DNA of 64,000 nucleotides, taken from the NCBI GenBank assembly GCA_030248225.1, contig JASANE010005003.1, forward strand, positions 33,139-97,138, read 5' to 3'. The DNA is from Trileptium ribeirensis (Eukaryota > Nematoda > Enoplea > Enoplida > Thoracostomopsidae). Positions 1 to 50,299 of the stretch are shown one piece after another. A model generated the notes under the pieces. It saw only the letters and a program-made list of their open reading frames with translations. It ran no database searches and was not told the origin of the DNA. The position numbers and the translations under genes were made by a program. Positions within the stretch are counted from its first letter, which is position 1. Every line of letters starts with the position of its first letter.

Positions 1-910
1 CTTATCGATCTACTAGATAAGCGTTCCGAACAACACCAACTAAACTCGATGATGCAGAATAACGGAACATCGTCGCTACGCGCTACTGCAATACCATCAG
101 TTACGCCGATAGGAAACCAATGTTTCCGATGTGGTTATTTAGGGCATTTCGCCAGATTGTGTCCGTATTTCGAATGGATGTGTATGATCCGCTGCAAAAT
201 GAATATACACGCCTAATTACATGTACAATGCACCACCACCAACCGCTAGCGAGTATGTTAGGCCACTACCGAAGTACAACAATCGCCCTTGGTATCGGGT
301 GGTTGAATCTGGAGGCGGAGGACGATCCTCGCGACGCGACGATTGGAACAATACGGCTAATCAGCGGGGATGCACTGGTTATGGGCAGCAAGGATATTAT
401 GGCCACGGGCATGCAACCTATACATATGGAAATGGCGGTCAGACCAAACATTATAATAGATCTCGCAGACGTAGCACAAACGGGTACAACCAGCGAAACA
501 ACGGTTATAACCCAACATTTGACCGACGCTATGCCGGACCACCCCACCCATTGTCAGTAGAAGCAAAACCGTTCGTCCGCGCACGCCTAGCAACGGTTAG
601 AATAATGCAAATCAAGTAAGAGCAGTAGCTCGAAATAGACCTGCGCAGGCACCAATAAATAACAACGATCGAGTTGACCGTCGTAATGCATGTGTAATGT
701 CAGTGACCAGAGCAGCAGATCCCGAGCTAGCACATAACTTAGATGCCATGCGACATATAATGTCTACGCTAGAAGAACGCGCAAGAGCTGGCTTAGGCAC
801 CCGTTCGGCACAAGTCAACATGATGGTCACTGAAGATGAGATAACGCACGAACAGGATAACCCAAATTTTGAAGTTGAATATGAATATCCAAACGAAATC
901 GAAACATAAC
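1..910 (+). pseudogene. gag: gag C-terminal part of a Ty3/gypsy-like element, truncated by the window edge
   Basis: Nucleocapsid end of a retroelement Gag, which binds the element RNA during particle assembly. The frame open from base 1 to about 219 carries a CCHC knuckle, C-x2-C-x4-H-x4-C, with the Cys codons at 121, 130 and 160 and the His codon at 145. A frameshift then leads to a Gly/Arg/Tyr-rich segment at 221-619, of the basic kind that often trails a Gag knuckle. A third segment at 697-909 is helix-prone and ends in an acidic tail. The start lies outside the window. At least two frameshifts make it non-functional as it stands. The knuckle is seen directly; assigning it to the same element as the downstream pol is inference from position and strand. 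Confidence 0.7.
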
Positions 911-2930: not shown

Positions 2931-3569
2931 ATAAACCAGCGAACCAGTGGACCCCTTAATCTTGAAGGATTACCAGACGAGGAACGTTTAGCGTTGAGGT
3001 CGGATTCAGAATTCGCGCCCGCAGTTAAATCAGAGTGCCACAGAAAAGTTCTTCACTACATTCTCGCACTACCTAGGCTACGTTTCGTAGAAGATCGAGT
3101 GCCAATAAGAACGCTATTTTACCGGAGGGTCATAGCTGTGTCGGAGCGGATATGCCATGCCTATCAGTTGCTCAGGATCCGAGTAGCTGAGACGGCCCGA
3201 ATCGGCGGACGGCGGGACGCTGCCATTTTGTCAAGGCTGTTAGGGTTCGTATCTCCATTCCTACACACTATGTCGGGGATACACGTCAGTAGTTGCATGT
3301 TGACACACCCAGAGGGACTCATGAAAATAGTTGCCCGAGTTATCAATTCAATGAGCATCGCGCAGGCAATCACTGAGGTGTACCGACCTCAAGTTCCCTT
3401 TCTCCAAACATGCATAGTTTGTGAAGAGCAACACAATCTAAACGTCATGCCCATGGAGAACTGTGCTTTCGCTACCTATCGCGGTGAGTGGGAAATTTAT
3501 CCGCCGACTACGGGACAATTAGGAGAGATGGAACAGCATCCACTCGACCAAGTATCACACAGGGATTGA
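2931..3569 (+). CDS. unrecognised 212-codon open frame of the element
   Basis: An open frame without an ATG at its beginning, bounded upstream by TAG at 2928 and ending at 3569. It has Arg-rich, helix-prone segments in the first two thirds, then a Cys-containing patch (TCIVCEEQHN, followed 10 residues later by another Cys) that could bind zinc. I do not recognise a family. Frames between 2317 and 2930 hold shorter broken pieces that may be its N-terminal part (helix-like TDLTRLIEQALRSPGS near 2722-2770). It lies between the gag and env-like parts, where a normal Ty3/gypsy element would have pol. Its length in a decayed region suggests it was once coding. A capsid-like or novel accessory protein are both possible. 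Confidence 0.4.
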   Translation: MNQRTSGPLNLEGLPDEERLALRSDSEFAPAVKSECHRKVLHYILALPRLRFVEDRVPIRTLFYRRVIAVSERICHAYQLLRIRVAETARIGGRRDAAILSRLLGFVSPFLHTMSGIHVSSCMLTHPEGLMKIVARVINSMSIAQAITEVYRPQVPFLQTCIVCEEQHNLNVMPMENCAFATYRGEWEIYPPTTGQLGEMEQHPLDQVSHRD

Positions 3570-3611
3570 ACTCAACCCATGAACTTATAGCGTATAGGAA
3601 AGCCAACTGAA

Positions 3612-3797
3612 ATGGTTAGAATTATAGTAAGAGCACCATACTTGTTGGTTTATCTTGTCACGGAATTCGACGAATCCGGACCCATCGTATACGCTATAAT
3701 GACTAACGCATTTTTCAGAGAAGTAGGTAGCAAACAAAAGCGCGAGGAACTACTGTACCTGCGACTATTGTGGTTACGCAAGCCCGCTCAAAAGTGA
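3612..3797 (+). CDS. short unrecognised open frame before env-like gene
   Basis: A 61-codon frame with an ATG start, a hydrophobic N-terminal stretch and a basic C-terminus. It ends 14 bp before the env-like frame. It could be a leader exon or a displaced piece of the flanking ORFs. No family is recognisable and the support is weak. Confidence 0.2.
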   Translation: MVRIIVRAPYLLVYLVTEFDESGPIVYAIMTNAFFREVGSKQKREELLYLRLLWLRKPAQK

Positions 3798-3810
3798 CCC
3801 AAACGAAGAC

Positions 3811-4830
3811 GTGGACCAAGTCCCAAACACGGACCATGACGCTGACATAACATTCATTGACGAAGAGGAACTTGAAAGTGAGTTGAGTGCAACACTCAGT
3901 GACGCCAGCGGGGACGAATTTGACATGCCTGCAGTTGAATCACTTGACTCTGATGATCTCACCTCAGAATTGGGTTTCTTCTCGGACGATGAAAATGATA
4001 GCTATGAACGATGCGACACTGGTGACAAGAGTGACCACGCATCACCGACCGGGTCGGTACTGTCTCCTTCGAACAGACCAAGCCAATGTGTAAAAGCTGC
4101 AGTCGGATTGCTGACTCAAGGAACCAAAATAATGGGATTACTAATAACTTTGTTGATCCTCCATAAGTTAGGGCAGGCTCATGCTATTGCTACGCCTTTT
4201 TCAGACCAAATGGCACGCTTAGGAGCTATGGTGAATCAACAGCTGAGTACTCTGGTTGAACCACAGGGTTTAGTGCTAACTTGTTTGCAATCCCCCTTTT
4301 TACTAATAATTTAACGGCTATCTTTAGATGGACTGCAACCCAGTCGACAGCCACCGGTACGACATGATATGTATACACTCCAAGGGCTAAACCTTGCCTG
4401 GGGAACTGCTGTTCCAACCCAAAGTTTACTACCATGCCGGATTTACAACAGAAAGTTCAAGAATTAGAATGAGAATTATGAACACCTATCAAGGCGTACT
4501 AGACATTAGTTACTATATGGCACCATGCGCGAATATTACGAGGCGAATGCTCATCTTTGTGAGGAAGCAAAGATTCCAAAGAAACGATTTCTCGCCACAT
4601 TAGACGGTGCCACAGGCGAAGTAACAGGATTTATATGCGTAGGCGTAGATTTTACTAATACCGTGCATCTAAAAGATTTAAATAAGCAAATACTCGCGTT
4701 ATCTAATGGCTCTTTTACGTTAATTTGTGTGCACCGTGACCTAGCTTTTTCTCAACAGTCTAGGTTTGCTACTTGGGACAATACAACAGTCACGGCTGAC
4801 TATCTGTTTTGTCCGCATTTACTTAGCTAG
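3811..4830 (+). pseudogene. env: env-like membrane glycoprotein, N-terminal half (broken)
   Basis: Likely the 5' part of a retroelement envelope-type gene. The frame at 3811-4314 begins with a very acidic segment of about 90 residues (EEELESEL, DSDD, SDDEND). A hydrophobic signal or anchor core follows (MGLLITLLIL), then a signal-peptidase-like AHA, and then what would be extracellular sequence. After frameshifts near 4315-4520 the frame at 4525-4830 continues with a Cys-containing, NTT/NGS-glycosylatable segment. The second half lies beyond a minisatellite, at 5775-7020. Hydrophobicity and sequons are seen directly; env identity is inference, because no diagnostic fusion-peptide or furin motif is clear. 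A different membrane protein is possible. Confidence 0.45.
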
Positions 4831-4916
4831 ATACGTGTACTAAGTCGCGCGTCATGGAGGACTAGACGGGACAAATAGACGAGTGTCGCCACACTGTTAC
4901 CGCAATTTATATCTCC

Positions 4917-5548
4917 CGCATTGGAATACTGCCAAAATTGAATTTCTCGCGCTGGACAACTGCCAAAATTTGAATTTACCGCGCTGGAAAAGTGGCAAAA
5001 TTTGAATTTCCCGCGCTGGACAACTCTTAAAGTTTGAATTTCCCGCGCAGGACCACGGCCAAGATTTGAATTTCCCGCGCTGGACAACCACCAAAATATA
5101 AATTTACAACGTTGGACAGCTCACAAAATTTGAATTTCCCGCGCTGGACAACTGCTAAAATTTGAATTTCCCGCGCTGGACAACTGCCAAAACTTGGATT
5201 TCCCGCACTGGAAAACTGCTAAAATTTGAATTTCCCGCGCTGGACAACTGCCAAAATTTAAATTTACAGCGTTGGACAGCTGCCAAAATTTGAATTCCCG
5301 AGCTGAACAACTGCCAAAATTTGAATTTACCGCGCTGGACAGCTGCCAAAATTTAAATTGACAGCGTTAGACAGCTGCCAAAATTTATATTTACAGCGTT
5401 GGACAGCTGCCAAAATTTGAATTTCCCGCGCTGGACAACAGCCAGAATTTAAATTTGCAGCGCTGGACAGCTGCCAAAATTTAAATTTGTAGCGTTGGAC
5501 AGCTGCCAAAATTTAAATTTACAGGATTGGACAGCTGTCAAATTTTGC
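4917..5548. repeat. 32-bp minisatellite, about 20 copies
   Basis: Head-to-tail units of 32 bp (GCGCTGGACAACTGCC followed by AAAATTTGAATTTCCC). The spacing is fixed by GCTGGA at 4951 and 4983. The left copies carry TTTCCCGCG; those toward the right more often carry TTTACAGCG. The array breaks the env-like gene. Because 32 is not a multiple of 3, the open frames read through it on the minus strand are artefacts. Confidence 0.92.
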
Positions 5549-5774
5549 TCCATAACATCGTTTATACTTGAGATATCTACGACCGTTATGCTATACTGTG
5601 TCTTTGTGCTATTAAAGACATATTACATGTCTGTCTGATCAAAAAATCTACACAGTCACGGCAGACTGTCACATATGTCCGTCGTTGTAGCTACGGTGTT
5701 ACGCGAACATACTGACAGCGACCGCCCACTATTAGGACACAGCTAAGCACGGCGCACACAAATTAACGTAAACG
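5549..5774. other. spacer between the minisatellite and the env-like second half
   Basis: Non-coding in all frames. A stretch at about 5652-5685 resembles the coding sequence at 4788-4820 just left of the array (both contain ACAGTCACGGC and a downstream TGTCCG). This may be a decayed flanking duplication around an inserted block. Nothing else is seen. Confidence 0.35.
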
Positions 5775-7020
5775 AGCCATAAGGAAATGAGAAACACCTA
5801 CAATGTCACCTACGGTATTTCGCGAGCAATTATGAAACTAACTCACGATAACGAGGAGCTATACTCATTTCTACATCATGAAATGCAAGAGGTTGTTAGT
5901 ATGATTGACTAAGTAAGGTGCCAAGAGCAGCGATATGTTACCGAGGTCTACCGCGAGCTGGTGAATCATATGTTTCGCACCAGTCTCCGATCATCGGTTG
6001 ACGCTGTCATGGAAGCCATGATGACCACCCAACTATCACCGAAAACAGCGGAGGCGGCTACGCTAAAGAACTTATTCCAAAAGAGTTCGCAGATAGCGCA
6101 GAGCTTTCTGATACGCGAACCAGCACTGGCTTACCAGTTCGGGCAAATTTATCCAGTACATATCGATCTAGGATCATTTAAATTTGCATTTATACTGCGC
6201 GTTCCATTAGTTACGTCGGATGACGTCCGACTATACTTTCGAATATACAACGTTGGCTAGATCGTTCCAGAGCACAGCGGCCACATGAAACTACCATTGC
6301 CTGATTACGCTATTCGAATTGAACGAGCACGGTATGAGGTCTTAAAATTGCACGCATGTAACACACGACCAGGCATTGCGTTCTGCGAGATACAAGCACT
6401 GGCAACGGACCACACATCGCGTTGTTTGGACTGGATCATCATGGGCGAGGACGCTCCGGATGAGGCTCGTCAACTCTGTAAGAACAGTGCATTGGTCGGA
6501 CCGATAGCCAACCATACCGACGTCTACACTACAGCACAAGGGGTTCTAATCCGAACCGCTGAACGCAAAGCTGTCGTCTCCAAGAAGAAGCATCTTAGTC
6601 ACGTGACCCGAGGAGAAACATTCAATGTCGCTGATAATGGGTTTTGTGGCTGTCGCATGATAACTACACCCGGCTCGTGGTCGGGCCACTTATGCTGGCT
6701 ACACATTAGTTGCGCAGGAAGTCACTGTTCACATTGGACCTAACATCACCATTCACGACTTCTCAGAAATACCCCTCAAACCGATCGCCTGGAGCTCGTT
6801 GGAACACGCCAAGGCGACGAACCTGCAAATCCAGCAAATGGCTGATGAACAGTTGAAGAAGGTAATCCACTTTCCATACATCACTACAACTAGAGTAGCT
6901 CCATACCTCTGGATGCTCATCGTGCTTGTAGTCATCGGCGTATGGGCAATAATCTATTTTAGGAAGAATGCCGGCTTTTGTCCTAAATGCATAAAAGTAC
7001 GTTTGCAGCGCTGGTGGTAA
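5775..7020 (+). pseudogene. env: env-like membrane glycoprotein, C-terminal half with transmembrane anchor
   Basis: One frame runs from about 5775 to about 6650, broken only by TAA at 5910 and TAG at 6258. A frameshift before 6720 then leads to the last segment, ending at TAA 7018-7020. Early parts are helix-prone with heptad-like spacing (residues coded at 5961-6150). The middle is Cys-rich (6345-6660). The end has a sequon (NIT), a helical stem, a roughly 22-residue transmembrane helix (core LWMLIVLVVIGVWAIIYF) and a short basic tail with CPKC. This layout is that of a class I-type retroviral or errantivirus envelope C-terminus. Family assignment is by architecture only. It lies immediately upstream of pol, whereas Ty3/gypsy env genes normally follow pol. 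Confidence 0.55.
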
Positions 7021-7770
7021 CAAAGACCATGTGGCCGGACGGAGCCAAAGCGACTCGAATTGAGTATCAAGACTGGAAATGCACCCCAAACGCTCCTCCA
7101 CCAATGGTTTCAGTCTCAGCCGCTTCCACGTAAGACTTGGAATTACGAACAATAAGTCCTCGTCGGTCCGCCAGAATAAATGCTACCAATGAGGACGAAA
7201 ACGTTGTTTTGATGGAGCCCACTGAACTATTTGCTGTGTCTGAGCGAGCCCAACGTAGAAGACATCGCAATGTAGCTTATCACCAGCACGTCAACGCGAT
7301 ACATCATATGGACACACCCTTGCGAATCAACGCTTGAGGTTATGATAGCCGGGGTCGTACGGGCATGGTGTTAGGAAGTTGCGCCATGCAGCTGCGTCAC
7401 CGTTATTACATATATACCGCACACCGGTACTTACATTGATCGATACCAGTGCAGACGTTTCCATTGTGTCGCAATACTTGGTCAGTAAATTAGGTTCCCA
7501 ACGTGCTCTGACGACTCCACTAGAATAGTATCTGCCACTAAGCAGGAATTAACGCTAGACGGCAGCATAAGCGTGCCTTTGTCGATCGTGTCCATAAAAG
7601 TACAAACCGAATTCTTTGTCATTAAAACAGCACCATATGACTGCATCATAGTAATAAATTTCATCTCCCAATTGCCAAAATGCATTATAAATTTTAAGGA
7701 ACGTTACGTAGAAGTCGCAGTTGATGAAGAAGATGCTAAGACACCCTTCACAGGTTTGGAACGTTAGGGC
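7021..7770 (+). pseudogene. pol: pol: retropepsin-like aspartic protease region
   Basis: The protease would cut the element polyproteins. The frame around 7336-7510 reads into LTLIDTSADVSIVSQYLV. The DTS catalytic triplet is coded at 7442-7450 with the usual hydrophobic strand before it and the ADVSIVS turn after it. After a frameshift, 7573-7767 supplies the C-terminal part (YDCIIVINFISQLPKCIINF), matching the late strand and flap side of Ty3/gypsy proteases. A basic, Arg-rich lead-in is coded at 7137-7335. Frameshifts lie near 7336 and 7520. DTS in place of DTG is common in such enzymes. Confidence 0.75.
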
Positions 7771-8028
7771 CCACCGCTAATCGCAGTAATGTGTAGGAAG
7801 CTTATTACAATAGTACGAAACACAGAAACATTTATTAACGCAATCCCTGAAATAGCTGAAACAGGTGTAGGACCAGCACTATTTGTGCCTGCACCGTAAA
7901 TGATCGATATTGCAATGGCACACGCATTAGTGTTAAGGAGCCAATGAACCATACCAATCGCAGTAATTAATTTCGGAAACACACCGGTCACTATCTATGC
8001 CGGACAGACAATTGGCCATATCGAAACA

Positions 8029-9102
8029 ATGATTAACCCTACCGTACAGTTCCTGAAAATCACAAATAGAAATTTGATTCGGTATGAAGAGCACCGCCGT
8101 ACCAAGCAATTAAATAACATAACAGCACATCCTGAAAGGATCATCCAACATATAGAGGCAGGAAAAAGGTCAACTGACCATGAGAGAGCTCAAACGGTCC
8201 TAGGTAGGATCGATTTTGACAGGGCCTTATTGTCTCCGTGTGAGCTAAAACAATTGAAAACCGCTGAAAATGTAGACGTCTTCAGCACGAATGATTTTGA
8301 CATAGGGCGTTATAATGAAAAAAGGTACAGCATAGAGACCGGAGACGCTAAGCCAATCAAGCAAGCACCGTATCGACTAGAATAATCCTTGCGTGAACCG
8401 CTTAGAGAGAAACTAAACAGTATGTTAGATGAGGCCATCAAGCTCACCTTGGGGATCACCAATAGCGTATGTAACTAAGAGTCGTCACTCTTCACTCCGG
8501 CTCTGTGTGGACTTTCGGAAGGTGAATACAGTAGCAGAAGAAAATGCATATCCATTGCCTAGAAAAGATGATATTTTAGGATGCCTCCGAAACACCAAAC
8601 TAATGTCGAGTTTAGACCTAAATAAAGGCATCTGGCAGTTAGAACTATTACCAGAGACAAAGGATAAAACATCTTTCGTAACGGTACACGGGCAATATGA
8701 ATATGACGTCCTGCCGTTTGGATTAAATTCACACCCAGGAGCATTCCAACGTTGCATGTCTATGATTCTGAAAGGGCTCGAATGGGAGAAATGCGTAATC
8801 TACATAGACGACATACTAATATTTTCACCAACGTTCGAAGCACACCTAGCGGGCCTAATCCGAGTTTTCGACCGTTTTCGCAATGCAAATTTAAAACTGA
8901 AACTATCAAAATGTCACTTTGGACGAGGCAGTCTAAATATCTAGGACACATAATTAGTACTGAAGGTGTCAAACCAGTCCCAGAAAAGGCAAAAGCAATC
9001 GAGCAATTCAAACGTCCGGAAACATTGAAGCAGCTTCAAAGTTTCCTGGGATTCGTAGGTTACTACCATAAGTTTATACCAAATTATTCGGACATATGCT
9101 AG
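8029..9102 (+). pseudogene. pol: pol: Ty3/gypsy reverse transcriptase
   Basis: RNA-directed DNA polymerase domain. All main blocks are visible in order: the N-terminal substrate loop (PIKQAPYRLE, before TAA 8383), SSSPWGSPIAYV, LCVDFRKVN, SSLDLNKGIWQLEL, LPFGLNSHPGAFQR and the catalytic box YIDDILIFS near 8800. After a frameshift near 8915 come KYLGHIISTEGVKPVPEK and SFLGFVGYYHKFIPNY. Lesions are few: one TAA (8383), frameshifts near 8420 and 8915, and a TAG at 9100. The aspartates of YIDD are intact. Block spacing and the LPFGL motif place it in the Ty3/gypsy (Metaviridae) group. Confidence 0.93.
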
Positions 9103-9783
9103 CCGCTGAACGAATTAAAGAGCAAAGATACGGAATTCAAATGGACCCCCAGATGTGAGGAAGCATTTAAGAAGTTGAAACAATCATTGCTGGATGAAAC
9201 GGTATTAGTTCACCCCGATTTTACACAGCCGTTCATCCTACAGACGGACGCTTCAGGATACGCAATGGGCGCAGTACTGTCACGGAAAACCAAACAAGGT
9301 CTCAAGCCCATTGCGTACGCAAGCAAAGCCCTACTAGATTATCAACGCAAATACCCCGCAATAGAAGCTGAAGCTCTCGCGATTAGGAGGGCTGCACTAC
9401 ACTTCAGGCATTACTTAGTGGGACACAAATTTCACGTAGAAACTGATCATAAACCGCTAAAAGACCTGTTTAACAAACCACCTAGAAACTCGCGTCTGTC
9501 TTAGTGGCGTAGCGAGTTACTGCTTGAATTCGGGGGATTTGAAATACAGTACAGACCGGGTAAGGAAAACGGCAATGCTGACGCTTTGTCGCGGGACCCT
9601 AGGTATGACCCGCACATAAATGAGAAACCGGGAGATACTTATGAAATTTTAATGATGGATAGAGGACGACCTACAGGACCCCGCCCGCCAGCATGCGTCG
9701 CTTGGGATCAATGCCACCTACCATTGCTAACCCTACCAAACCCAGAAGCAATACCATTGCAACTAGTGCCGACACTCAAGTAA
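9103..9783 (+). pseudogene. pol: pol: RNase H domain and linker
   Basis: It continues the same frame as the end of RT. The connection segment (EFKWTPRCEEAFKKLK) is followed by RNase H with FILQTDASGYAMGAVLSR (first catalytic Asp), YPAIEAEALAIRRA (Glu) and HVETDHKPLKDLF (Asp). The typical end GKENGNADALSR lies near 9560-9595. One in-frame TAG lies at 9502. Past 9600 the frame becomes a Pro-rich linker to its stop at 9783. The catalytic carboxylates appear intact. Confidence 0.9.
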
Positions 9784-9988
9784 CTACAGTACCCCCAGCA
9801 ACGCTTAAGCTAATCCCAATTAGGATGGACCCGGGAGAAACACCAGTAATGGCCGTACATACAGCAACCGCCTCGTGTTCTGGAGGCAGACCTCAGGCTC
9901 GAGGGTCTAAAAACCATTCCGGCCAGAATCGGAAACCATGGGTTTAAGAGCAATCACACCACCGACAGAGCATTAATTTGATAGGCTC
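9784..9988 (+). other. spacer between RNase H linker and integrase remnant
   Basis: A short stretch with broken Pro/Thr-rich reading frames (one at 9693-9947). It probably belongs to the pol linker. No domain is recognised. Confidence 0.3.
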
Positions 9989-10951
9989 ATGAAGCTAATG
10001 ATGCACTACGAAACAGAGATATTACCAACGGTTCGGATCGCGGCCGCACAAGATACTCATGAAAACATACATTTGCCGTTGTTTTCAGATCTCCCAGAGT
10101 TTAATCTAGTACGGCTTTTACCATACATCCAGCGAAACGATCCAGAAGTAGGTCCAATTTGGTGGTATCTATATAGCAAAATACGGCCCAAGGCCGAGTT
10201 ATGCGCACTGAGAATTGAGATGGGAGCACATTATTTCGAGCTAGCCCCGAACACCAAGCTATTGTACATGCATATTGTGCAACCACGATATGAAACAGGA
10301 GAATTAGTCTGGGTTTATAGGTACGACATCACACCAGGAACATATAGGAAACTCACACCGCGTTGGTGCGGACCACCCGAGATATTAGGAATAACCCCAC
10401 CGTGCATGCGCGTAAGAATGCATTCTAATACGGAAGCAATGGTGTATGTTGTACACATTAATAGGACTAAACCACGATTTAGGGCATTAGACCCAGTAAC
10501 TAACGTAGGGGACTGGCTAGGTCAAGTACACACTTCCGTACTAGAGCTGAGTTTGAATGAACCAACCCAACGAATTATCGCTGATAGAGACTTTGTTACC
10601 GAAATAGAACCAGCAGACGAAGTAGCGGTACGCACAGTAAGAACGGCAATCAGTGATAGTTTTGACACCGAAAGCGTAGAGATGGGCGACCCTAATGACC
10701 CTAACTTATATCGCCGGACGTACGCGGAAATTGAAGCCGAACAAGCGGCCATATACCATGTAGAATATCGGATCGACGAATACGAACCCCAGAATCCACG
10801 CACAGTCAGGAATCGGATTGCACTGACTGATCCAGATAGAGAAATAGAGCCATCTTGGCCGCCAATAACGCAGGAGCAACTTACAAGTCAAGAGGCCTTC
10901 TCATATATACCAGAACATGGTACCCGAGATACGCAGGTAGAATACGGATAA
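9989..10951 (+). pseudogene. pol: integrase remnant lacking zinc finger and DDE core, 320-codon intact frame
   Basis: An uninterrupted frame from ATG 9989. Residues about 40-95 match the segment that precedes the integrase zinc finger in Ty3/gypsy elements (QRNDPEVGPIWWYLYS, then HYFELAPNTKLLYMH). Directly after residue 100 (about nt 10289) it reads YETGELVWVYRYDITPG and KLTPRWCGPPEILG, which is the GPY/F chromodomain-like C-terminal module of integrase, ending VVHINRTKPRF. The HHCC finger and the roughly 150-residue DDE catalytic core that normally lie between are absent, yet the frame is kept across the join. Residues 170-320 are acidic and poorly structured. It cannot have integrase activity. 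The join may be an old internal deletion in a non-autonomous copy, or a fusion with a retained role. Confidence 0.8.
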
Positions 10952-12530
10952 CACACAACACCTGTAACAACAATGGAAAGGATAGTAGCTACTAGTGAGG
11001 AAGTTCCTTTCGGAGATCCCACAGTAGGCGTCGGAACACTTGAGGGGCAACATTTCTATCCAGCAGATCTCACGCTGTCTATCACGCCACAAGGAGGTTC
11101 CGGTGGAATCATCGTACCTGGACCATACACCTCAGGAGATCTACGTTACGCTATTATGCTCACTGCTCAAGACCAATTATTATTTCAATCACGACCAGCT
11201 GAACATATCATGGCGTCGCGAGTACGAGTACCAATGGATTGAAATGTCAACCCAAACCTTGGAGGACTACAAAATAATGCGTCCTTTCAGCGCCCCATCC
11301 GCGGCTGCCGACAGACCTATTCCACCCTATTATTGGGCCTACCGAGAACCGGCCATCATAAACCGACCTTCAGGATCGCCTATGTCTAGCTATTTGTCCG
11401 AGACCTCTGGAGAAGGCACAACCGTAGATGTGAGAGCAGCCGAAGCAGACGATGAACGAACTAGCCAAACCTCATAGGAACCATCTTCCGCCGAGCGGCT
11501 TGGCCAGGCAAGACAGGAAACATCGAGTAGCGGTTCAAGGACACCTAGTACACAACAGGGAACCTATGTCTCACAGGGCAGACGAACGATCACCGAGTCA
11601 AGTAGCGAAGCGCCACCACCCCAGAAAGGAACTGGTCGTCCAGTGATCTAAAGTGCTCTTCCTCGCACACGGACACCACCGGAAGAGCGAAGAAAGGCCC
11701 CTGTCGGACGGACCACTCAATGAAAGCAAGCCAGAACGGCACAAGGAAGCTCAACTATCCAGTTTGTTACTACAAACAGCCCGGAACGTCCACGGTGACA
11801 ATTACTGAGTTGATACGTACAACTGCCACAACTACATTTTTTGGAATAATGCGACCCAGTACCGCTCATGCGACCGTCCCGACTAGACATATCTTACATC
11901 GATAGGCCAGAGATTGGGTCTTTAGGCCACGCGGTACGGCATCGGACGAGGAAGTAGGAGAAGCCCTCCGCGGCGGCAGACGTGTGACCTTCCAATAGCC
12001 AGGAGTAACTACCAACGAAGCCGCCGGAACGTCCACCAGATTAGCTTCTACTACGCGCACACAATCCATTAGTGTCACCGCCTCGATGACCAGTGCCGCG
12101 ATGTCGACTCCACGGCAAACCCTGTTAGAAGAACGCACCCCGGGCGGAATTGTCCCGCCGCCCATATTCCCACGATATCCTTCTAGCCAGGAACTACGCC
12201 CCGCAGCCTGGAGACAACAAACAACCGGCCCACAACCTTATGAGGAGTCTGACTCGGATGATCCCGACTTACGAGTGGACTAATGCAATTCCTATTAGCA
12301 CGTACTACCAAACCAAAATCCCAAAGAAAACTCAAGGGGGGTGAAGAGGGTAAAATAAGACACAACATTAGCGGTGAACAAAAGCATCCTTACACATGGA
12401 CTCATTACGTACATCGCCATTATAGATGCGACGGAGCTACAGTGCGAACGATATTAGCGCCGTGTTGATCCCAAAGGGCATGCGGCACGCACCGGCGGAA
12501 GACGACGGGCACACATATCACAAAATGCCC
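10952..12530 (+). pseudogene. degenerate Ser/Thr/Pro/Gln-rich region linking pol to the NADAR module
   Basis: The integrase frame continues in phase past TAA 10949 to 11242. A shift then gives 11240-11640, rich in Ser, Thr, Pro and Gly with one TAG at 11475. Further broken pieces reach 12344 (for example 12086-12283, Pro- and Asp-rich). The composition suggests a disordered N-terminal part of a third polyprotein. No domain is seen. Base composition is more GC-rich than the DNA beyond 15.1 kb, which fits formerly coding sequence. Confidence 0.4.
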
Positions 12531-12533
12531 TAA

Positions 12534-13665
12534 TGCTTTGTGGACCAGCTGGAGCGGCGAAAACTGTTCGCGGTCAAGGGCACACGGTGGAGCCGACTGT
12601 CCAGCGAATACCCCATGGCAGACCGATTCGAACATGACGGAAGACGCCTATCCAGTGCCGCCGAGCATTATCAATTCGGCGTCTTGGCGCTAATCGGCCG
12701 CGAAGAGGAGGCCAAAGAACTGGGCGAAATGAACACTTGCCCAACCGAGCTACAACTCTGCAGCATAGCCAAACAACGCCAACTACCCATCAGCGTCAGA
12801 CGGTGGCACATGTCGTACCGACCCCACCTAATGCGGCCAATCGTCTTGGCAAAATTCAACATCGACGAACACGCCGAGGAACTGGAGAAAACCGGCTGCC
12901 GGCAACTCCTGAGTGACTCAATGAACAAATTTGGAGCATCGGCACCATCCAGGCCCAGTCTTGCTACCACCGGGTCGCGTGCCATAACGTGACGGGTCGA
13001 TTGCTCAAAGAAATTCGCGCATTTAATCGAGATGGTTTCGTACGATGGCCCCGGGTGATCATCGTCGGCAACGAACAAGCCTTGCCATTCCTTGACGTGG
13101 CATACCAACATAATTGGCTCGTCTTCGCCTACCCGACGTTAAATATGGTCGAATTGCAACAATGGTGACGCTGCAAACGGATTGTATTTTTGTCCTGGGC
13201 GGCTATGAAGACGTGTGGTTGGCGACTCGGAAGGCATTCTCGCCGGGCGCCTTACTTTAAGCGCCTCAAGCGCCACCGGGGAGTGTTGGATTGGGAAGAC
13301 GCAGCCATTTCCATGGCATCGCCAACCCATCAATGGGACGCCGACAATTATACGGGTGGCGCCTGGGGGCGTCAGTTTCGCACCAGGAAAACGAAACTCA
13401 CCATCGAACATGAGGCCCTCCGTAGCGTAATAATGCTACGATGGCCTGCGTCACTAATGGGTACCGAACCTGGCACGTGGTCGGACCGTTCGACCAGGGG
13501 GAAGACCGACGACGTTGGAATCAACCCGTTGTTTCACTCCAAATTGGTCGCTTGGATTGAACAACATGTCCAGAGCGCCGAAATCATCGGGCGACTTATG
13601 GAACGACCGCCACCAAGAGAAGAATACTACGTAAATCTGATACTGAGTTATAAGTCGTGAAAGAT
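12534..13665 (+). pseudogene. NADAR-like domain joined to SGNH-like domain, copy 1 (frameshifted)
   Basis: The first frame (12534-12992) has NADAR-family features: an N-terminal strand with AVKGTRWSRLSSEYP, the SAAEHYQF helix carrying the family Glu, and LMRPIVLAKFNIDEH, then LEKTGCRQLLSDSMNKFGAS. The last block has lost the Glu and Trp of the usual LxExSxDxxWG. After a shift near 12950 the frame reads RVACHNVTGRLLKEIRAF, the conserved xHN-GRLL ending. It then reads WPRVIIVGNEQALPFLDVA, comparable to SGNH block I, and after another shift CIFVLGGYEDVW, comparable to block III. The frame at 13190-13660 supplies the rest, with an FHSKLVAWIEQHV end. NADAR proteins act on ADP-ribose-linked substrates. 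Three frameshifts imply a pseudogene. NADAR assignment is fairly firm; SGNH is tentative. Confidence 0.65.
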
Positions 13666-13877
13666 AGTAAAATTTTCTCGGACTATTGGGGAGGGGAAGA
13701 AACTTTAGGGTGCCCAACAGATAACAGGAACAACAAATTTTTGCCTAGGCAGACTGAAGCCGAAGCAGGCACATTAGGATAGGGGGTATAAAACACCTAA
13801 AGCACACGCGCAAGCGGCGCGGAATGCTTGGTAGCTAAGCGGTTGCAGGCCCGTGTTTATCTAAGTTCTCTTTGCAG
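13666..13877 (+). other. intermodule spacer ending in a splice-acceptor-like site
   Basis: About 210 bp without an open frame between the two NADAR-SGNH modules. It ends in a pyrimidine-rich run and CAG (TTCTCTTTGCAG, 13866-13877) placed directly against the ATG of copy 2 at 13878. Retroviral and errantiviral 3' genes are often made from spliced subgenomic RNA, so a 3' splice site here would let copy 2 be expressed separately. The site is seen; its use is inference. Confidence 0.5.
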
Positions 13878-15129
13878 ATGAGCGACAAAAACAACAACCG
13901 ACGATCTAGCAATGGTGGTGAACCAACCAGCAATAGGTCCGGCGGACGATTATCAGCGGTCGGACCGTTTACCGTGCCAGAGGCAGTTTGTTACCAGTTG
14001 CCTACGATACCGTTTTACCAAGTGGACTTGGCGAAACCATATGCCGCATTCTTTTCACACGGCACCAATTGGCCATAGTCATCCAACATTCACATAGCTC
14101 CAGCTCCGTTCAACAACGACGGCATCATCGTCGTCACCGCCGAGAAACGCTATCAAATGCAAGTGTTCTCGTTCCTGGAGCAGACCGATGCCGCTCGTGA
14201 AATACTCCAAATGACAGGTACGCCACTGCAGGTTAAAGTTAGGTCATGGGGGCTAAAAGATGAGCTCATAGACTACGTCACCAAAGCCCGCCTTAAGCCC
14301 TTGTTAGAGCATATAATGCGACCAATATTGCTCAACAAGTTTGCTATGCCGGAATACGCACACATTCTTCGGTTCACCGAAGACCGCCAACTTCTTGAAG
14401 TCTCTACAGACGCTTTTTGGGGTGTCGGACGCTCCAATCAGCAACTGCAAGGCAATGAGGCACCAGGACGCTGCCACAACGTTATGGGCCGTTTGTTGGA
14501 AGAGGTGTGTGAATATCGCACCACAGGACATGTATGATGGCAGCATGTAGCCATCCTTGGAGATGCTTTGGCGCTGCCCCTGTTAGAAACGGCAGGCGAT
14601 AACAAATGGCTGGCCAACGGGTGGCCTGGTTCTTCGATGGTCCGACTCATCCAGGTTGCCAATGACGTACTAACGCCTCAGCTCAAGTGCATAATTCTGT
14701 TGGGCGGCTATTACTACATCTATAGAAAGGCTCCGCTGGAGCACCAACCCGAACGCTGCATTCAAGAAAGTTAAGCGCCAATTGAGAGTGTTGTCAAAGC
14801 GGGTAGCGCCGACAACGGCAATCACTATCGCTCCCCCAATACCGCGTTGGGTTGCTACCAACCAGGATGCAGCGTCCTGGACAACTGAACTAAAAAAGAT
14901 AATCGCCAACCATCGGCAGCGCCATGACACCCTCCACAATGTACAAGTCCCAGATTGGCCGGTCACTTTCAATACTGCTGACGCTTGGGAGCGGGACGAA
15001 CCGCATATGGAGTGGCGCGAGCGGCCACAATTCAGTGAACCGATGGTCTCAAATTACTGCCGCCGCAACTTGCGTGAGCAGGTGAGCCATCTAGTGCGCG
15101 ATGCTGAATTGGGACGCCTTGCACCGTAA
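13878..15129 (+). pseudogene. NADAR-like domain joined to SGNH-like domain, copy 2 (nearly intact)
   Basis: From ATG 13878 one frame runs to about 14750 with only TAG 14076 and TGA 14535, then shifts once to reach TAA 15127. After about 40 polar residues comes a NADAR-like domain: VTAEKRYQM (family Glu), MRPILLNKFAMPEYAHIL, the signature LLEVSTDAFWGVG and CHNVMGRLLEEV. It continues into VAILGDALALPLLETA, GWPGSSMVRLIQ and CIILLGGYYY, matching SGNH blocks I to III. Block I has Ala where the nucleophilic Ser of GDS should be, so this domain may not be catalytic. The key NADAR residues look intact. Known NADAR enzymes remove ADP-ribose from nucleic acid bases or metabolise ADP-ribose derivatives. 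The rest ends with a basic helical tail (15060-15129). Confidence 0.7.
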
Positions 15130-16340
15130 AAGCGAGCACAAAGCGCACCGTTAGCAGCTAGCGTTAGCGAAAAAACAGGGCGAAAATTTCACGACTTTCT
15201 GAAAGAAATACCTATAGGAAGGAGAACCAACATAAGACATCCAACTAGTTAAAACAAGCAACCGCGAAGTACGTCAAGAACGTCGACTTAAGACACCATT
15301 CGCAAGTATTCTATGCATCTGAATAAGATAGAAATAATGGCGACATAATCTCAATATACCAACCCTATTAAGGAAAAGCGACAATTTGTAAGGAAGTCCT
15401 CTAGTAATTGAGCACACCGCTAGTAATAATCACTCCTTTCCAACGATCCCAAAATAAAACTAATAGGCATAGCAATTCCGAAACCAGCCTATAAAATTTA
15501 TTCCAGGAGAATTTTCTAAGGGAACCCCTGGGTCGAGACAAACCGGCAGCCGGGTCCTTTTCCTGGGGTACACCAAACAAAAAATTCACTTGGAGGTACG
15601 CGCTAAACTGTATATCTATATATCTATTGTTTGTTGCTATTATTGCTATTATGAGGTGTCAAAATAGGGAGCAAAGAGATAATTCAAGGGAATAACAAAT
15701 TCTCAGAACCAAGAAAACGAAATTTAACAAACTCAAAATACTAAAAATAAGGGAAAACTTCTAAAGGTACCGAATAATAAGGGGGATTACGTTTTTGGCA
15801 ACACAAATCCATAAAGAATTGTCGTCCTTCTATCCGTTTCTCGGGAATTTAAATTTTAATTCTTTGGGAATTTTTCATATCTTCGGAAAATTTTAAGAGT
15901 TGATTACAAAGGCTGTACATCATATCGGACAAAAAGGAGCTAATTTTTACACATATTTTACATTTTCTTATACATATGTCCCCAAAATTGATTTCTACCA
16001 TAAGTAAGGAGTTTAATAAACCCAAAAAAATTTAAGAGATGTAACAGCAAGGGATTTTCTGGGGATTTTCTTCAAATACCTAAATCAAGTAAATATCCAG
16101 AATCAGGGTTATAATGGGCAAATTCAACATGGTGGGCGACCGGATACTGATACGGGAAGTTGATTGCGCCGTTCTGTGTGCTGTACCCGAATTTTGAAAT
16201 GTGTGGTTCTACATATGTGTAAACCATTATATTTGTGTGTATGCTCATTTGCAGCTTTTATGTATAATCATTCTAGGATTTTAAATATTCAAAATTGGAA
16301 AAATGGGAGCCGGGTCAAGAAAATTAAGGGGACCCAGATT
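15130..16340. other. AT-rich non-coding 3' region of the element, U3-like
   Basis: No coding frame is supported. A-rich purine runs that could serve as a polypurine tract occur near 15169, 15767 and 16024. A possible LTR start TGTAACA lies at about 16040. The matching 5' LTR is outside the window, so the boundaries cannot be fixed. Confidence 0.35.
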
Positions 16341-16735
16341 TCTGACGGGGTTTGCACTGGAAGTATAAAAGGAAGGGGCCCGGCACAGCATCGGAGCCAG
16401 TCTTGAACGAGTTTTCTAAAATTGACGACGTTTTATTTTGGGCGGTTGTCGCCGTTTTCTGCACTGCAGTTTTTGCTTGTAGAGTTTCGTTTCTTTGTTT
16501 AACTACCAAAGTTTGCGCTTTCTGGGAGCAGCTCTCGTGTGTAGACGCAGCGTAGAGTCCCTCCTGGTGTACTTTTCTTTGCCGAAATTTGCTAGCACGA
16601 GCTGCCCTTGCGGGTGCTGGCGCGTCCGGTGGATGCTCCGCGCATCGGTAAGTGCAGCCCCCAACAAAACTGAGAAATAACGCGTTTTAACAGATCACAA
16701 AGTTTTTAGCTCTCGACTGGTTCCCCGCTCGTCGG
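16340..16735 (+). promoter_or_regulatory. LTR-like TATA/initiator promoter, + strand
   Basis: TATAAAAGG at 16364 is followed 35 bp later by an arthropod-type initiator, CCAGTC at 16397-16402. Downstream are a GC-richer transcribed leader, a donor-like CGGTAAGTG near 16645, and the motif TCTCGACTGGTTCCC at about 16711. The same arrangement, with the same 35-bp TATA-to-initiator spacing, occurs on the minus strand at 20.94-21.29 kb, so it is a repeated element and not a unique gene promoter. It may be the 3' LTR of the element that fills 1-16 kb. LTR ends were not found. Confidence 0.5.
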
Positions 16736-19700
16736 GTTTTTATTTTTTTATTTATATTATTATTTTATTATATTTTTATGTTCTAGACGCGGTGGGCGAA
16801 ATTTTACTGCTTAGTGATGTGAATGGACGTTGGAAAAACAAAGACACACGGGGGGTAAGGCGTTAATTGAATCGCGAAGACCTGGACGCAACTGCTAGCT
16901 CAGGCATTCAGACAAGTGTAAGTAGGATTTGTTCGCGAGGCTACCGATAAATCTAGAGCGTTATTCCCTGAGGTTTTATTTGTTCCGTAGCAGATCATTC
17001 GTCTTAACATCAGTTTCCACGCCGTGTAGACTGGACAGGGAACTTCATTGATTTTAAATTGAACAGTTTAGGGCCTCCCCGGTTCGAGTGAGCATGTTAG
17101 CACACTACGGAACCTCGCACCGCCCTATTTTCCTTTAAACCGTGCTCGACTTTTGCATTGGAGATTATCGTACACGCTTTCAAGTTTGTAAAACATTTCG
17201 CCTTGTATCGTATGTCAGTGAGCTGTGAGTGGCTCCAGGTCATCCGAGAGTACAGAGTGTCAATTAGGGTACGGAGAAGTACAGCAATTAAAACGGACAT
17301 GGTCATTTGCAGCCCAGGACGCAGTAGTATTCTAAATAAAACTACAAAGTAGGGACTCCTGACGGAACCGCCAAAATTTGAGTGAATGCCTTGAGTTGTT
17401 TTTCAACTAAGTAAGGCCCAACGCCCATGAAATTCACGCAAGTTACACATCTTGTCGACACGGTTGAAGATTTTGTCAATTTTTAACAATTAATAACCAT
17501 CGTCGGGTGGATCCGGACATTCCGATAGGAGTGACGTATCTTAACCCCTCGTGTGTTATGTCGACACATTTCTGTTAAGCTTTAGCGAAGTTAAAATGCT
17601 CCTCCGAGCGTAAAGTCTATAGCTCGAGGCTCTCAATCCAAAACGGTTTAGTCAAGCAACGTGATAGCAGTCATTTTAGGTCAGAGGTGCTGCCAGTGAT
17701 CACGGACCCTGATGCGAAATGAAAATGCCTTGAGGGGCGCCATGCTAAAAATGCAGAGTAAACTGCAGTCTGCTGTGACGTATCAATCTAGTCTAAGTTC
17801 AAACAAAGTTACTCGAGACCGCACCCCATAGTCGAGCTAGTGCCCTGAGGAGTTCAACTAACAAAAGTGCCCTCCCAATCTAAGCAAAATTATCGGACGC
17901 GGACTTCCACACATGGTAGACGTGGTAGAATCCTCGTTGGAGCAATCTATTTTTATGTCAAGAACATAAGTTTGAAATGATAGGAAGGTAGGCAACGTCG
18001 GCCTGAACCCACGAGACGCACCTATTACTTTCCGCTTGCATACGGCTATCCGCTCTCCAGTTTGGCCCGGTATAATCCGTTTTTTATCGCGCTAGGAGTC
18101 TCAATGTTCAAAATAAGCTGACAGTTCGCATGTGACCCCAGACGTGGCGAAGCGAACTTAGCATGTAAATATGGAGAACGAGAGAACGCTTGGACACCGA
18201 TAAACTCACATGTTTATAGCAGGCCTAGTGGAAAATTTGTGACGAGACATGTTTTGCACCCGTAAAGTGGGGTAAAATTTATAAAGTTCACATCACAAGT
18301 AGCCTTGTTATGGGTACACTGCGAGGTACCCACGTTCGTAATTCTGTATAAATGTTATACCTACGTCTTTGAATACATAACTTTGCTTTTCGCTAATAAA
18401 GTGTTAGACTGTTAAGTGCATCTTTGGGCGATACGTTTTAACCAATACCCGTCGATAAAAAGGTCACAAACCAAAGGCCGATTATTATTTTTCAAGTACC
18501 AGGTTTTGCCAACAACACTATTCTCGAGGAACTAAATAATCTTACTAGGAAGTCAGTTAGGTGCCATTTAAGCAGCAACCGGCACAACTTGCATCTGATT
18601 TAGTGCTGGGTCCCGTAGGCAGGTTTCGGTCCTCTGTTTCCACTAAATTATTTAGACCAGGTAAATGCTCTGGGATCAGTACCCAGGTGTTCCCTAGAGA
18701 TCATTTTAACGGGAAGGTTCCCTCCAGGCTAATCAAAGATACCGTCGAACCCGCGTTCATGCATTCAGGTTCAAGGTGTGGGAACCCCAATTATTAAGGA
18801 TAGTGAGTAGAATGAGGGCAAGGCAGGTCAGCCTTAGTACCTGTGAGCAGGCTTAGGGGTTAACCCTCCCTCAGGGGACCTTCATACTACTAGATACGTG
18901 GGCCAGTAATGGGGGCCAGGCCGAAAACCCTGGTAAACCCGCCGGCAACTCGTTAAGCTAAGCGATTCCCTTAGGTCAGCTAACAGTTCACCGGGGCGTC
19001 GTGAAAGCCGGGGTTGTCCGGGCACCACAATGCAATATAATGTGGTGCAGCTGGGATTCCTTAGGGCCTGAACTGGTCCTAGTACAAAGTACCGGCTCTG
19101 CGTTACATAAAATTTTAAAATATTACAAAATATTGCATTAGAACAGGACAGAAAACGGAGAGAAGAAGGTTGTTTCGAAGCAAGAGCTTCGAGACCGACT
19201 AAGTATAAAAGTAGTAAGACGACGGCAGCCTGAAGTCTATCGGTGCAAATTTTCAGCAGAATGGTCGGGTAGTCCGACCTGCATTTTAGCACGAGTACGC
19301 TACTGTTTGCTTTACGTGCTGCTTTCGAATTAATGCTCAGACGTTGCTATGCGTATGTCTGAGCTTGCTATCGTAGGTCGTTTTGTTTAGCAGCTCCAGA
19401 TATGAAGCAGGGGAACCCATCTTGATCACACGACCCTGGTCCTTTCGGCTTCCTAGAATTTTCCCAGTTCTGGGTGTGTTAAAACCGGTGCGCCGTGATT
19501 ACCAACGTTTCACCGCGCTCATCGGAAATCAACTCACTAACGGAAAGGCACAGTCAAATAGGCTTGGCTCCTATATTTGTGTGTCAGAAAACCTTTGCTT
19601 TTTGTTTTCGTGTACACAAAATTGGCTAATGGTTATTGACGTTATTATCGTTATTGGCCAATGGTACGCCGCTCACTGCCAGTTGTCGAGATCAACATGT

Positions 19701-20935
19701 TCTTTGATCTCTAAACGAGGTTAGCTGTTGGAGGGTCTGAAAGCGGTAGGTATATTTTAAAAATAAGATAAAATGCAGCGACTTCGGCAAACCAACCAAC
19801 TGGCTTCCCCTAACTGAATCAATGTGCTCCGATCATGGTATAGTATAATAAAAAATTTCTTCTCGTAATATCTGAAGTTCTTTGTTTTTATCTCAATTTG
19901 GTACGTTATGTGCTTACAGATTTCCCTTGGAATGAAAGTTTGAGGTTGCTATTATACAAGTATTGTATAGTATATGCAGTGGCCATTACTAGTCACGCAA
20001 ACACTACATTTGGCTCAAAACCAAACATAATGTTTTATATGCATTAATGGTGTTCCTTAGCATCTTCGTCTGAAAGGGCATATTCAGATTTCAAAACATA
20101 AAGTAGCTTGCTGCATATGAATGAATTTATCATGAAAATGGCACCAATTTCTGTTTTCAACGTCCTAATATTGGCATATCTCTATGTTGGTCAATATATG
20201 TTTATTTGTATAAAAGTTGTGTATTTTTAACGAAGAAGAGAAATTGCACCTAAATATAATTTCTTCAATATATAGGCCCGCAGTAAATTGTATGACTCAA
20301 CCATTGTGTTCCTTAGCAAACAATTTTCGCACGCAGAAGAAACCCGGCACTGTGGGTGTTGAGCGCCTACAGTGATCCAAAACAGTCGAATTTTTAATTC
20401 TCGTAGAAATGACTGCGTCCTTTCTCTTTACCTATCCGGTCTGAAATTCATCCATACTCAGCCAAAGTTTTCATTACTACTGAAGCCAGCCGCTCGTCAT
20501 TGTCGCTTGGAGGAAACCCCGAACTCCCATCGACCGAAACTGCGCCGAAGATTCGTTCATTTGTCTAGGATATTTTGGAGAACGTTGAAAGGGTGAAGAA
20601 GGCGATCAGTGCCCTTATGGCGTGCTAGGTCAGCTCGCCTGGCGCCACAGAGGCCTTCCGTTTTCTGATAAGAATTTTCAGGGCTCCCGGTTACCGATGT
20701 TGCACGACTTGGGGGCACCCGTTTTTTGAGAATTTTGCACGGGACCTTTGGTAGAAAAATTTCCTGTGGTTTCTGTGATGCTATAAGGCTGTGACGGCGG
20801 TAGCCGCGACTGCCGTCAGATTTGCCCTATTCTCCCGGTGCTCTCCAACCTTTATCAATGAAACCCTTACATCAAATTTTGTAAAAAAGCATTGACATCC
20901 ATCGGACCTATAAAAAAGACAAGAAAATGGCCCGA
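16736..20935. other. unassigned sequence, no supported gene
   Basis: About 4.2 kb with only short chance frames, the longest 136 codons on the minus strand at 18882-19292, with no recognisable motif or splice logic. A GC-richer block at about 18560-19500 contrasts with its AT-rich surroundings, but I could not match it to rRNA or a known element. A hairpin with a 9/10-bp stem (TGACGGCGGT...ACTGCCGTCA) lies just beyond the listed bounds of this featureless stretch, at about 20791-20817. Confidence 0.4.
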
Positions 20936-20939
20936 TACG

Positions 20940-21300
20940 CAGGGAACCAGTCGAGAGTAGGGGCGATATCGTTTTATTGAATAATTTTACAAATTTGGTA
21001 TTTTTGTCGGGGCCCGGCCTTTACGAGCGCGCGGAGAATCCTTCCGACGCTCCGGCGTCCGCAAAGGCTGACCTTGCGTGTTCAAAAGAAACTGAAAGCA
21101 CAGGTGATGCTGTTCGCAGTTGAGGTACAGCGAGGAATCACCCTGGAGAAGCCGAAAATAGAAAACCTAAAATAAAAAACAAGCCATCATACGAAAGTGA
21201 AAAAATAATTAAATGGCGACAACCGCCAAACAAGCTAAAGCAAGTCTCGACTGGTCCTGATGCGATTTCGGGTGGTATCCTTTTATACCCTAATCTAACC
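20940..21300 (-). promoter_or_regulatory. LTR-like TATA/initiator promoter with poly(A) signal, minus strand
   Basis: Read on the minus strand: TATAAAAGG (plus 21279-21287), initiator ACCAGTCGAGA 35 bp on (plus 21249-21254 for the core), a GC-rich leader containing GGCGGTTGTCGCC as in the 16.4-kb copy, AATAAAA (plus 20972-20978), and then TCTCGACTGGTTCCC (plus 20942-20956). The shared order and motifs show that it and the 16.34-16.73 kb region are diverged copies in opposite orientation. The poly(A) signal downstream of a TATA promoter is what a U3-R-U5 unit looks like. Confidence 0.5.
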
Positions 21301-50294: not shown

Positions 50295-50299
50295 GCATC

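What the first reader, a model, noticed from the sequence alone, without database searches (positions are those of the whole stretch)
12534..15129. Retroelement carrying two tandem NADAR-SGNH-like modules
Two diverged head-to-tail units lie downstream of pol. Each holds a NADAR-type signature (in copy 2 LLEVSTDAFWGVG and CHNVMGRLL; in copy 1 AAEHYQF, LAKFNIDEH and CHNVTGRLL) followed by an SGNH-like fold pattern (GDALALPLL and ILLGGY in copy 2; GNEQALPFL and VLGGYED in copy 1). They occupy the slot where env or accessory genes sit in retroviruses. Known NADAR proteins reverse ADP-ribosylation of guanine bases or process ADP-ribose metabolites, and bacterial members pair with DarT-type toxins. 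A mobile element bringing such an enzyme could be countering a host nucleotide- or ADP-ribosyl-based defence, or protecting its own RNA or DNA. That role is inference.
Basis: partly seen in the sequence, partly recalled or inferred. Interest (0 to 1): 0.92.

Follow-up and report, generated by a model that had tools for sequence, protein, structure and literature searches.

The report
Retroelement with two tandem NADAR-type genes
A decayed Ty3/gypsy-type retroelement carries, just after its polymerase gene, two old tandem copies of an accessory gene that begins with an enzyme fold (NADAR) known for handling ADP-ribose; such domains are only recently known from retroelements, and here the active site looks partly worn away.

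Summary
Two head-to-tail paralogous units (12534-13660 and 13878-15129, + strand) follow pol of a decayed Ty3/gypsy-type element. Copy 2 holds a NADAR domain above Pfam's cut-off (PF08719, E 8.9e-11). Copy 1 matches no curated NADAR model alone, but its three pieces are homologous to copy 2 (28-41% identity), so it is a diverged relative. The 'SGNH' half is not supported: no profile hit for any piece, and the expected Ser and Asn are absent in both copies. A lysine essential in one tested NADAR is Val in both copies; copy 1 also lacks the last-strand Glu. Copy 2's ATG directly follows the highest-scoring AG|ATG acceptor-like site of the first 16 kb. No unit piece has a membrane-grade stretch, so env is unlikely. 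The genes are broken. No LTR pair was found in the window and no relative with the modules was found, so that they belong to the element is likely, not proven. NADAR domains in Gypsy (Ectocarpus) and Tx1 elements (oyster), and GDSL third ORFs after pol (rotifers), are published. I file it as a new variant of a known kind.

The parts
203..906 (+). gag-like region (RG/Y-rich C-terminal type) in two frames
   Evidence: ORFs 203-619 and 601-909; no meaningful Pfam hit (best 0.077); gag reading is by eye
7489..7764 (+). protease C-terminal half (tentative)
   Evidence: ORF; no Pfam hit; reading by eye from the residue pattern, recalled
8429..8941 (+). reverse transcriptase piece
   Evidence: PF00078 E 7.6e-22; best PDB match Ty3 RT 4ol8, E 1.3e-34
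9103..9501 (+). RNase H piece
   Evidence: PF17919 E 2.8e-36, PF17917 E 1.2e-30; Ty3 4ol8 E 3.1e-14
9977..10948 (+). integrase remnant: C-terminal-like stretch plus long tail; catalytic core not detected
   Evidence: MLVIN_C only 0.011, below cut-off, no rve, while rve is found in relatives L026 and L018
12534..12989 (+). copy 1, NADAR-related domain, broken
   Evidence: homologous to copy 2, E 6e-14; no curated NADAR hit alone
12917..13165 (+). copy 1, end of NADAR-related domain and start of second domain (other frame)
   Evidence: tblastn to 14409-14654, 37%, E 9e-14
13169..13657 (+). copy 1, rest of second domain (fold unknown)
   Evidence: BLASTP to copy 2 piece 28%, E 1e-8
13859..13877 (+). 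splice-acceptor-like tract ending in AG directly before the copy 2 ATG
   Evidence: tied third of 491 YAG sites in 1-16000 by a simple score; the only one of 20 AG|ATG sites there to reach its score
13878..14075 (+). copy 2, start codon and N-terminal part, closed by an in-frame stop
   Evidence: no NADAR signal in this piece alone
14079..14534 (+). copy 2, NADAR domain
   Evidence: PF08719 E 8.9e-11, above cut-off; TIGR02464 1.4e-12, below its cut-off
   Evidence: 41% to copy 1, E 1e-8; no SGNH hit
14695..15129 (+). copy 2, rest of second domain to stop (other frame)
   Evidence: 28% to copy 1, E 1e-8; no SGNH hit
16040..16700 (+). possible 3' LTR start and promoter-like TATAAAAG at 16364 (tentative, end unknown)
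   Evidence: sequence; TGTAACA occurs at chance level; no LTR pair in window

Best explanation
A dead Ty3/gypsy-type LTR element carries in its third-gene slot, between pol and the presumed 3' LTR, two separate accessory genes that arose by an old tandem duplication (shown: order, homology, decay; inferred: that they belong to the element). Each makes a protein with an N-terminal NADAR-type domain and a C-terminal domain of unknown fold. Copy 2 was probably made from a spliced subgenomic RNA (inferred from an acceptor-like site abutting its ATG). Mechanism I judge most likely (inferred): the protein entered the element's particle or RNA-protein complex and bound ADP-ribose or an ADP-ribosylated ligand on element RNA, cDNA or Gag, shielding it from, or cleaning off, host ADP-ribosylation. 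Copy 2 keeps the two acidic residues that hold the distal ribose but lacks the phosphate-binding lysine, so weak or altered hydrolysis or mere binding is more likely than standard guanine-ADP-ribosyl hydrolysis; copy 1 looks catalytically dead and at best a binder. I put the anatomy at about 0.85 and the mechanism at about 0.25.
For: NADAR profile hits for copy 2. Paralogy in all pieces. Copies diverged under protein constraint: nucleotide identity at codon positions 1/2/3 is 0.53/0.55/0.33 over 277 aligned codons (some copy 2 codons counted twice, against two frames of copy 1), with 0.25-0.27 expected from composition. Ty3-type RT and RNase H on the same strand. A-over-T skew on this strand is 0.20 in pol, 0.131 in copy 1 and 0.105 in copy 2, reached by 1 and 4 of 39 windows of 1200 nt beyond 17 kb. 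Breaks counted by hand from the ORF list: about 6 in 3.5 kb of pol, about 3 in each unit of 1.1-1.25 kb. Acceptor-like site before the ATG. Active-site comparison with residues named in PMC11543638 (passages). Precedents: NADAR in Gypsy and Tx1 elements (PMC12477816, section 5 part 1 of 2 and passages); extra third ORFs after pol in rotifer elements (PMC5408684, passages).
Against: No LTR pair and no second copy of the modules found in the window. 0 of 16 related Ty3/gypsy loci carry a NADAR signal; many of these contigs are short or cut. The key lysine is Val in both copies; copy 1 aligns Ala, one residue off a Glu, at the first catalytic position and Ser at the last-strand Glu. Skew falls to 0.02-0.09 in parts of both units, and the units are slightly more broken per length than pol, so both are weak evidence for belonging.
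Confidence: 0.5

Rival explanations
1. The NADAR-type proteins are structural or RNA-binding parts of the retroelement RNA-protein complex, with no ADP-ribose role left; the fold was kept as a scaffold, as seems possible for Tx1 ORF1 proteins.
For: Loss of the catalytic lysine in both copies and of further residues in copy 1, yet protein-level conservation between copies. NADAR lies in ORF1 of oyster Tx1 LINEs (PMC12477816).
Against: Copy 2 still keeps both acidic residues, Asp and Trp of the pocket, which a pure scaffold need not keep.
Confidence: 0.25
2. Captured or host NADAR genes that lie next to the element by chance or were carried along as passengers, without function for it.
For: No LTR pair found; no relative with the same cargo in 16 loci; NADAR genes exist in many invertebrates (PMC11125620, passages).
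Against: Same strand, directly after pol, units read through mostly open frames with no obvious intron, A-over-T skew shared with pol though weaker, decay of the same order, duplication followed by constraint.
Confidence: 0.2
3. The second domain is a degenerate SGNH/GDSL esterase relative, like the catalytically dead GDSL derivatives of some rotifer Athena elements, so each gene is a NADAR-SGNH fusion.
For: Motif order read by eye: GDA/GNE, GGY and a PP-rich strand (frames; positions); GDSL third ORFs after pol are known (PMC5408684).
Against: No family hit for any piece, no PDB profile hit to an SGNH enzyme, hhalign probability under 1%; Ser and Asn positions not kept in either copy.
Confidence: 0.3

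Closest known systems
Ectocarpus Gypsy elements with an N-terminal Pol NADAR domain (PMC12477816)
   Same: Ty3/gypsy element carrying a YbiA/NADAR-type domain; role unknown
   Different: There one domain at the N-terminus of Pol, highly conserved; here two separate tandem genes after pol, diverged, with eroded pocket. Sequences were not compared here
Tx1 LINE ORF1 proteins with NADAR domain, Crassostrea gigas (PMC12477816)
   Same: NADAR domain in an accessory ORF of a retroelement
   Different: Non-LTR element; ORF1 upstream of the RT (recalled); not compared by sequence here
Rotifer Vesta/Juno LTR elements with GDSL or DEDDy third ORF; Athena GDSL ORFs (PMC5408684)
   Same: Non-envelope accessory ORF downstream of pol; some GDSL derivatives (Athena-L) lack catalytic residues
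   Different: Other enzyme families; no NADAR in the passages seen
E. coli YbiA and DarT1-linked NADAR antitoxins (PMC11543638, PMC11125620)
   Same: Copy 2 is homologous to the NADAR domain
   Different: Lys replaced by Val; no ADP-ribosyltransferase partner found; followed by an unknown second domain
NADAR domains of animal RNA viruses and large DNA viruses (PMC9503650)
   Same: Virus-like element of a eukaryote with NADAR cargo
   Different: The paper's NADAR section lists phages, NCLDVs and RNA viruses, with RNA-virus NADARs in polyproteins; it names no retroelement

Membership tests
NADAR domain superfamily | Match to the family profile above the curated cut-off | tested here: met
   Copy 2 only: PF08719 42.7 bits vs 35.1. 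Copy 1 alone: not met; linked by homology to copy 2
NADAR hydrolase (active enzyme) | First catalytic Glu (E43 P. nicotianae, E88 E. coli C7) | tested here: inconclusive
   Present in copy 2; in copy 1 Ala at the aligned column with a Glu one residue on
NADAR hydrolase (active enzyme) | Phosphate-binding Lys (K50/K95; Arg tolerated in vitro) | tested here: not met
   Val in both copies by register; Lys or Arg in all 4 reference proteins aligned
YbiA subfamily of NADAR | Glu in the last strand (E125 equivalent) | tested here: inconclusive
   Met in copy 2 (LLEVS), not met in copy 1 (LLSDS)
NADAR domain superfamily | YbiA-like fold | not tested
   The one job for this domain failed; later jobs were not accepted
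SGNH/GDSL hydrolase | Family profile match | tested here: not met
   Pieces only: none in Pfam or NCBIfam at E up to 1; hhalign 0.42% and 0.08%
SGNH/GDSL hydrolase | Ser of GDS and Asn of GxND | tested here: not met
   GDA/GNE and GGY in the two copies (positions), placed by eye against the SGNH alignment
Ty3/gypsy LTR element | Ty3-type RT-RNase H | tested here: met
Ty3/gypsy LTR element | Integrase core after RNase H | tested here: not met
   No rve hit in the tail ORF; no tblastn match of L026/L018 integrase to 9.6-12 kb at E up to 5. Taken as decay of this copy
Ty3/gypsy LTR element | Paired LTRs | tested here: inconclusive
   None found; the element appears to begin before the window
DarT1-NADAR toxin-antitoxin system | Neighbouring ADP-ribosyltransferase gene | tested here: not met
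   No such family in the 28 window pieces scanned; not every ORF of the window was scanned

The most novel reading that the evidence does not exclude
A retroelement family keeps a pair of NADAR paralogues, one with a modified pocket and one dead, in the third-gene slot as a two-protein system that binds and removes ADP-ribose which the host puts on retroelement RNA, cDNA or Gag: an ADP-ribosylation-based restriction of retroelements in an invertebrate and its counter-measure.
Probability: 0.1. Interest if true: 0.85.

Novelty: new variant of a known kind. Interest (0 to 1): 0.5.

Why it matters
NADAR domains have turned up in RNA viruses, DNA viruses and phages (PMC9503650) and, in a 2025 paper, in two kinds of retrotransposon (PMC12477816), with the benefit to the element unclear. 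A third retroelement setting (separate, duplicated genes after pol) would argue that ADP-ribose handling is something retroelements keep acquiring. If true it points to host ADP-ribosylation of retroelement parts, which can be tested with a recombinant domain from an intact family member.

Tried and rejected
Host or family identification: a protein search with the copy 2 NADAR piece (11 candidates, none E <= 0.01) and with the integrase-tail ORF (603 candidates, none) found nothing; both miss full-length relatives because of the tool's length limit. The RT piece found 267 of 314 candidates at E <= 1e-10, 120 listed, best 53% identity, most from unnamed sources. Viral-contig scans with NADAR, RNase H, second-domain and RT pieces and with P0003 found none. 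RT profiles gave 1 viral contig (the same one) and 15 loci in bacterial assemblies, probably eukaryotic contamination, while the RT piece alone gave none there. NADAR and second-domain models on the 892 ORFs of 50 aa or more in these 16 loci gave no hit better than E 0.034; many of the contigs are short and cut.

Rejected: a DarT-type pair (no transferase found); env (no transmembrane-grade stretch); a formal dN/dS between copies, since third positions are near saturation (33% identity), replaced by codon-position identities. Copy 1 as an independent NADAR call by curated profile: rejected. PADLOC gave nothing for four pieces at E up to 0.1. PDB search with the copy 2 NADAR piece gave only chance matches. 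Searches of phages and plasmids with it gave weak NADAR matches (best E 7e-3 and 5e-3).

Papers: searches of NADAR with retrotransposon (104 papers, 20 listed, mostly the author name), 'NADAR domain' with transposable element (1), with LTR and endogenous (4), with Metaviridae (2), YbiA with retroelement (2) and YbiA/Tx1 terms (14) showed one paper on NADAR in retroelements, PMC12477816. 'NADAR domain' with GDSL gave 0 papers. Only open-licence papers are searched there.

Full report
What was claimed. All nine quoted motifs are there.

The element. No tRNA was found by ARAGORN and no Rfam match at gathering threshold; the window looks eukaryotic. RT and RNase H pieces are Ty3-type (PF00078 7.6e-22, PF17919 2.8e-36; best PDB match Ty3 RT, 1.3e-34 and 3.1e-14). 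The ORF after RNase H has only a weak integrase C-terminal-like hit (0.011) and no core, whereas relatives L026 and L018 have one; this copy has probably lost it. No LTR pair was found in the first 24 kb or by self-comparison of the window. A-over-T skew is positive in every 2-kb block to 16 kb and slightly negative in the next two; in detail it dips to 0.02-0.09 within parts of both units. It is 0.20 in pol, 0.131 in copy 1 and 0.105 in copy 2; of 39 windows of 1200 nt beyond 17 kb, 1 and 4 reach those last two values. This fits an element ending near 16 kb but is weak evidence. A TATAAAAG lies at 16364. The genes are broken by stops and frame changes.

The two units. Copy 2 (13878-15129) has an ATG, an N-terminal piece, a NADAR domain and a second domain; two in-frame stops and one frame change break it. 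The NADAR piece passes Pfam's cut-off and matches two NCBIfam NADAR models below their own cut-offs. Copy 1 (12534-13660) matches copy 2 piece by piece in the same order; its scores lie far above 500 shuffles per comparison. By itself copy 1 has no curated NADAR hit; its best independent support is phrog_1017 at 0.009, the PHROG that copy 2 hits at 2.8e-11 (that PHROG bears no functional name), and 6.7 bits with a four-protein NADAR model made here. Profile-profile comparison of the aligned copies with those four proteins gave 91% probability, E 8.8e-7; copy 2 carries most of that.

Age and constraint. Between copies, identity is 0.53, 0.55 and 0.33 at codon positions 1, 2 and 3 over 277 aligned codons; some copy 2 codons were counted twice because copy 1 continues in another frame. 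Composition alone gives 0.25-0.27. So the copies are old and diverged while the protein mattered; alignment by protein adds some bias to positions 1 and 2. A formal dN/dS was not made.

Active site. Residues are taken from passages of PMC11543638 and PMC11125620. In the alignment with YbiA and three other NADAR proteins (all four pass PF08719), copy 2 keeps the first Glu, the last-strand Glu, the Asp and the Trp; the essential Lys is Val. In copy 1, register with copy 2 puts Ala at the first Glu with a Glu one residue on, Val at the Lys, Ser at the last-strand Glu and Asn at the Asp. All four references have Lys or Arg at the Lys column. The shared Val suggests a change before the duplication, though decay cannot be excluded in a dead copy.

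The SGNH half. The quoted motifs exist, but none of the pieces hits an SGNH family, profiles of the pieces hit no SGNH chain in PDB at E up to 10, and hhalign against six SGNH esterases gave 0.42% and 0.08% (alignment, comparison). Crossed controls in the same call gave 0.30%, 4.28% and 0.27%; the 4.28% is the copy 1 piece that also holds the end of its NADAR part, against NADAR. The Ser of GDS is Ala or Glu, and GxND reads GGY in both copies. I leave the fold open. The esterase set was TesA-like, so a distant SGNH branch would be missed.

Expression. A pyrimidine-rich tract ending in AG abuts the copy 2 ATG. It ties for third among 491 YAG sites of 1-16000 by a simple score made here, and is the only one of 20 AG|ATG sites to reach that score. 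This suggests a spliced mRNA for copy 2; no transcripts were available. None of seven unit pieces has a membrane-grade stretch (max KD19 1.32).

Relatives. No locus with the modules was found in viral contigs, bacterial-genome assemblies or the protein database. Eukaryotic genomes could not be searched. The closest RT among fetched loci, L026 (50% identity), has two other ORFs after pol, one with a Tudor domain (PF00567, 3e-11) and RING-type hits below cut-off. That fits a slot whose cargo changes, but L026 has no demonstrated LTR pair.

Literature. PMC12477816 (section 5, part 1 of 2, and passages) reports a NADAR domain at the N-terminus of Pol in one Ectocarpus Gypsy lineage and in ORF1 of oyster Tx1 LINEs, role unclear. 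PMC5408684 (passages) reports GDSL and DEDDy third ORFs after pol in rotifer LTR elements, and GDSL derivatives without catalytic residues in Athena-L. PMC9503650 (section 19 and passages) lists NADAR in phages, large DNA viruses and animal RNA viruses. PMC11287256 was seen in passages only and adds nothing here.

Verdict. Real tandem NADAR-type genes, most likely cargo of a decayed Ty3/gypsy-type element; second domain unknown; enzyme activity doubtful; new variant of a known kind.

Noticed in passing
window 2931-7017: ORF pieces upstream of the protease/RT region, the last (6664-7017) with a strong membrane stretch (KD19 2.52): env-like by eye, yet between the gag-like region and pol. Unusual order, or parts of two elements.
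   Followed up: partly
window 4694-5792: Nineteen 32-bp tandem units (4914-5520) flanked by 45-nt inverted repeats: a MITE-like insertion inside the env-like region.
   Followed up: no
window 16710-20957: Inverted repeats of 48 nt, 73% complementary and best matched at their outer ends by eye, 4.2 kb apart: possible DNA transposon directly after the retroelement.
   Followed up: no
window 33854-40370: Large tandem array; self-matches are offset by about 73 bp.
   Followed up: no
window 25042-32902 and 46077-50295: Inverted pair of related repeat blocks; the longer matches between them are 69-84% identical.
   Followed up: no
window 7327-7411 and 61503-61588: A stretch of about 86 nt repeated in inverted orientation at 92% identity, perhaps a short interspersed element near the protease region.
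   Followed up: no
L026:5458-6966 and L026:7274-9454: Two ORFs after pol of a Ty3/gypsy element in a MAG labelled Limnohabitans (likely eukaryotic contamination): the second has a Tudor domain and RING-type hits below cut-off, the first no Pfam hit. A RING-Tudor gene as retroelement cargo would be notable given Tudor proteins of small-RNA silencing (recalled).
   Followed up: partly
L012 and L018: Contigs with identical ends (123 and 91 nt), as expected from circular assemblies of one-LTR forms; L018 has a 1058-aa ORF after pol without Pfam hit at E up to 0.1.
   Followed up: no
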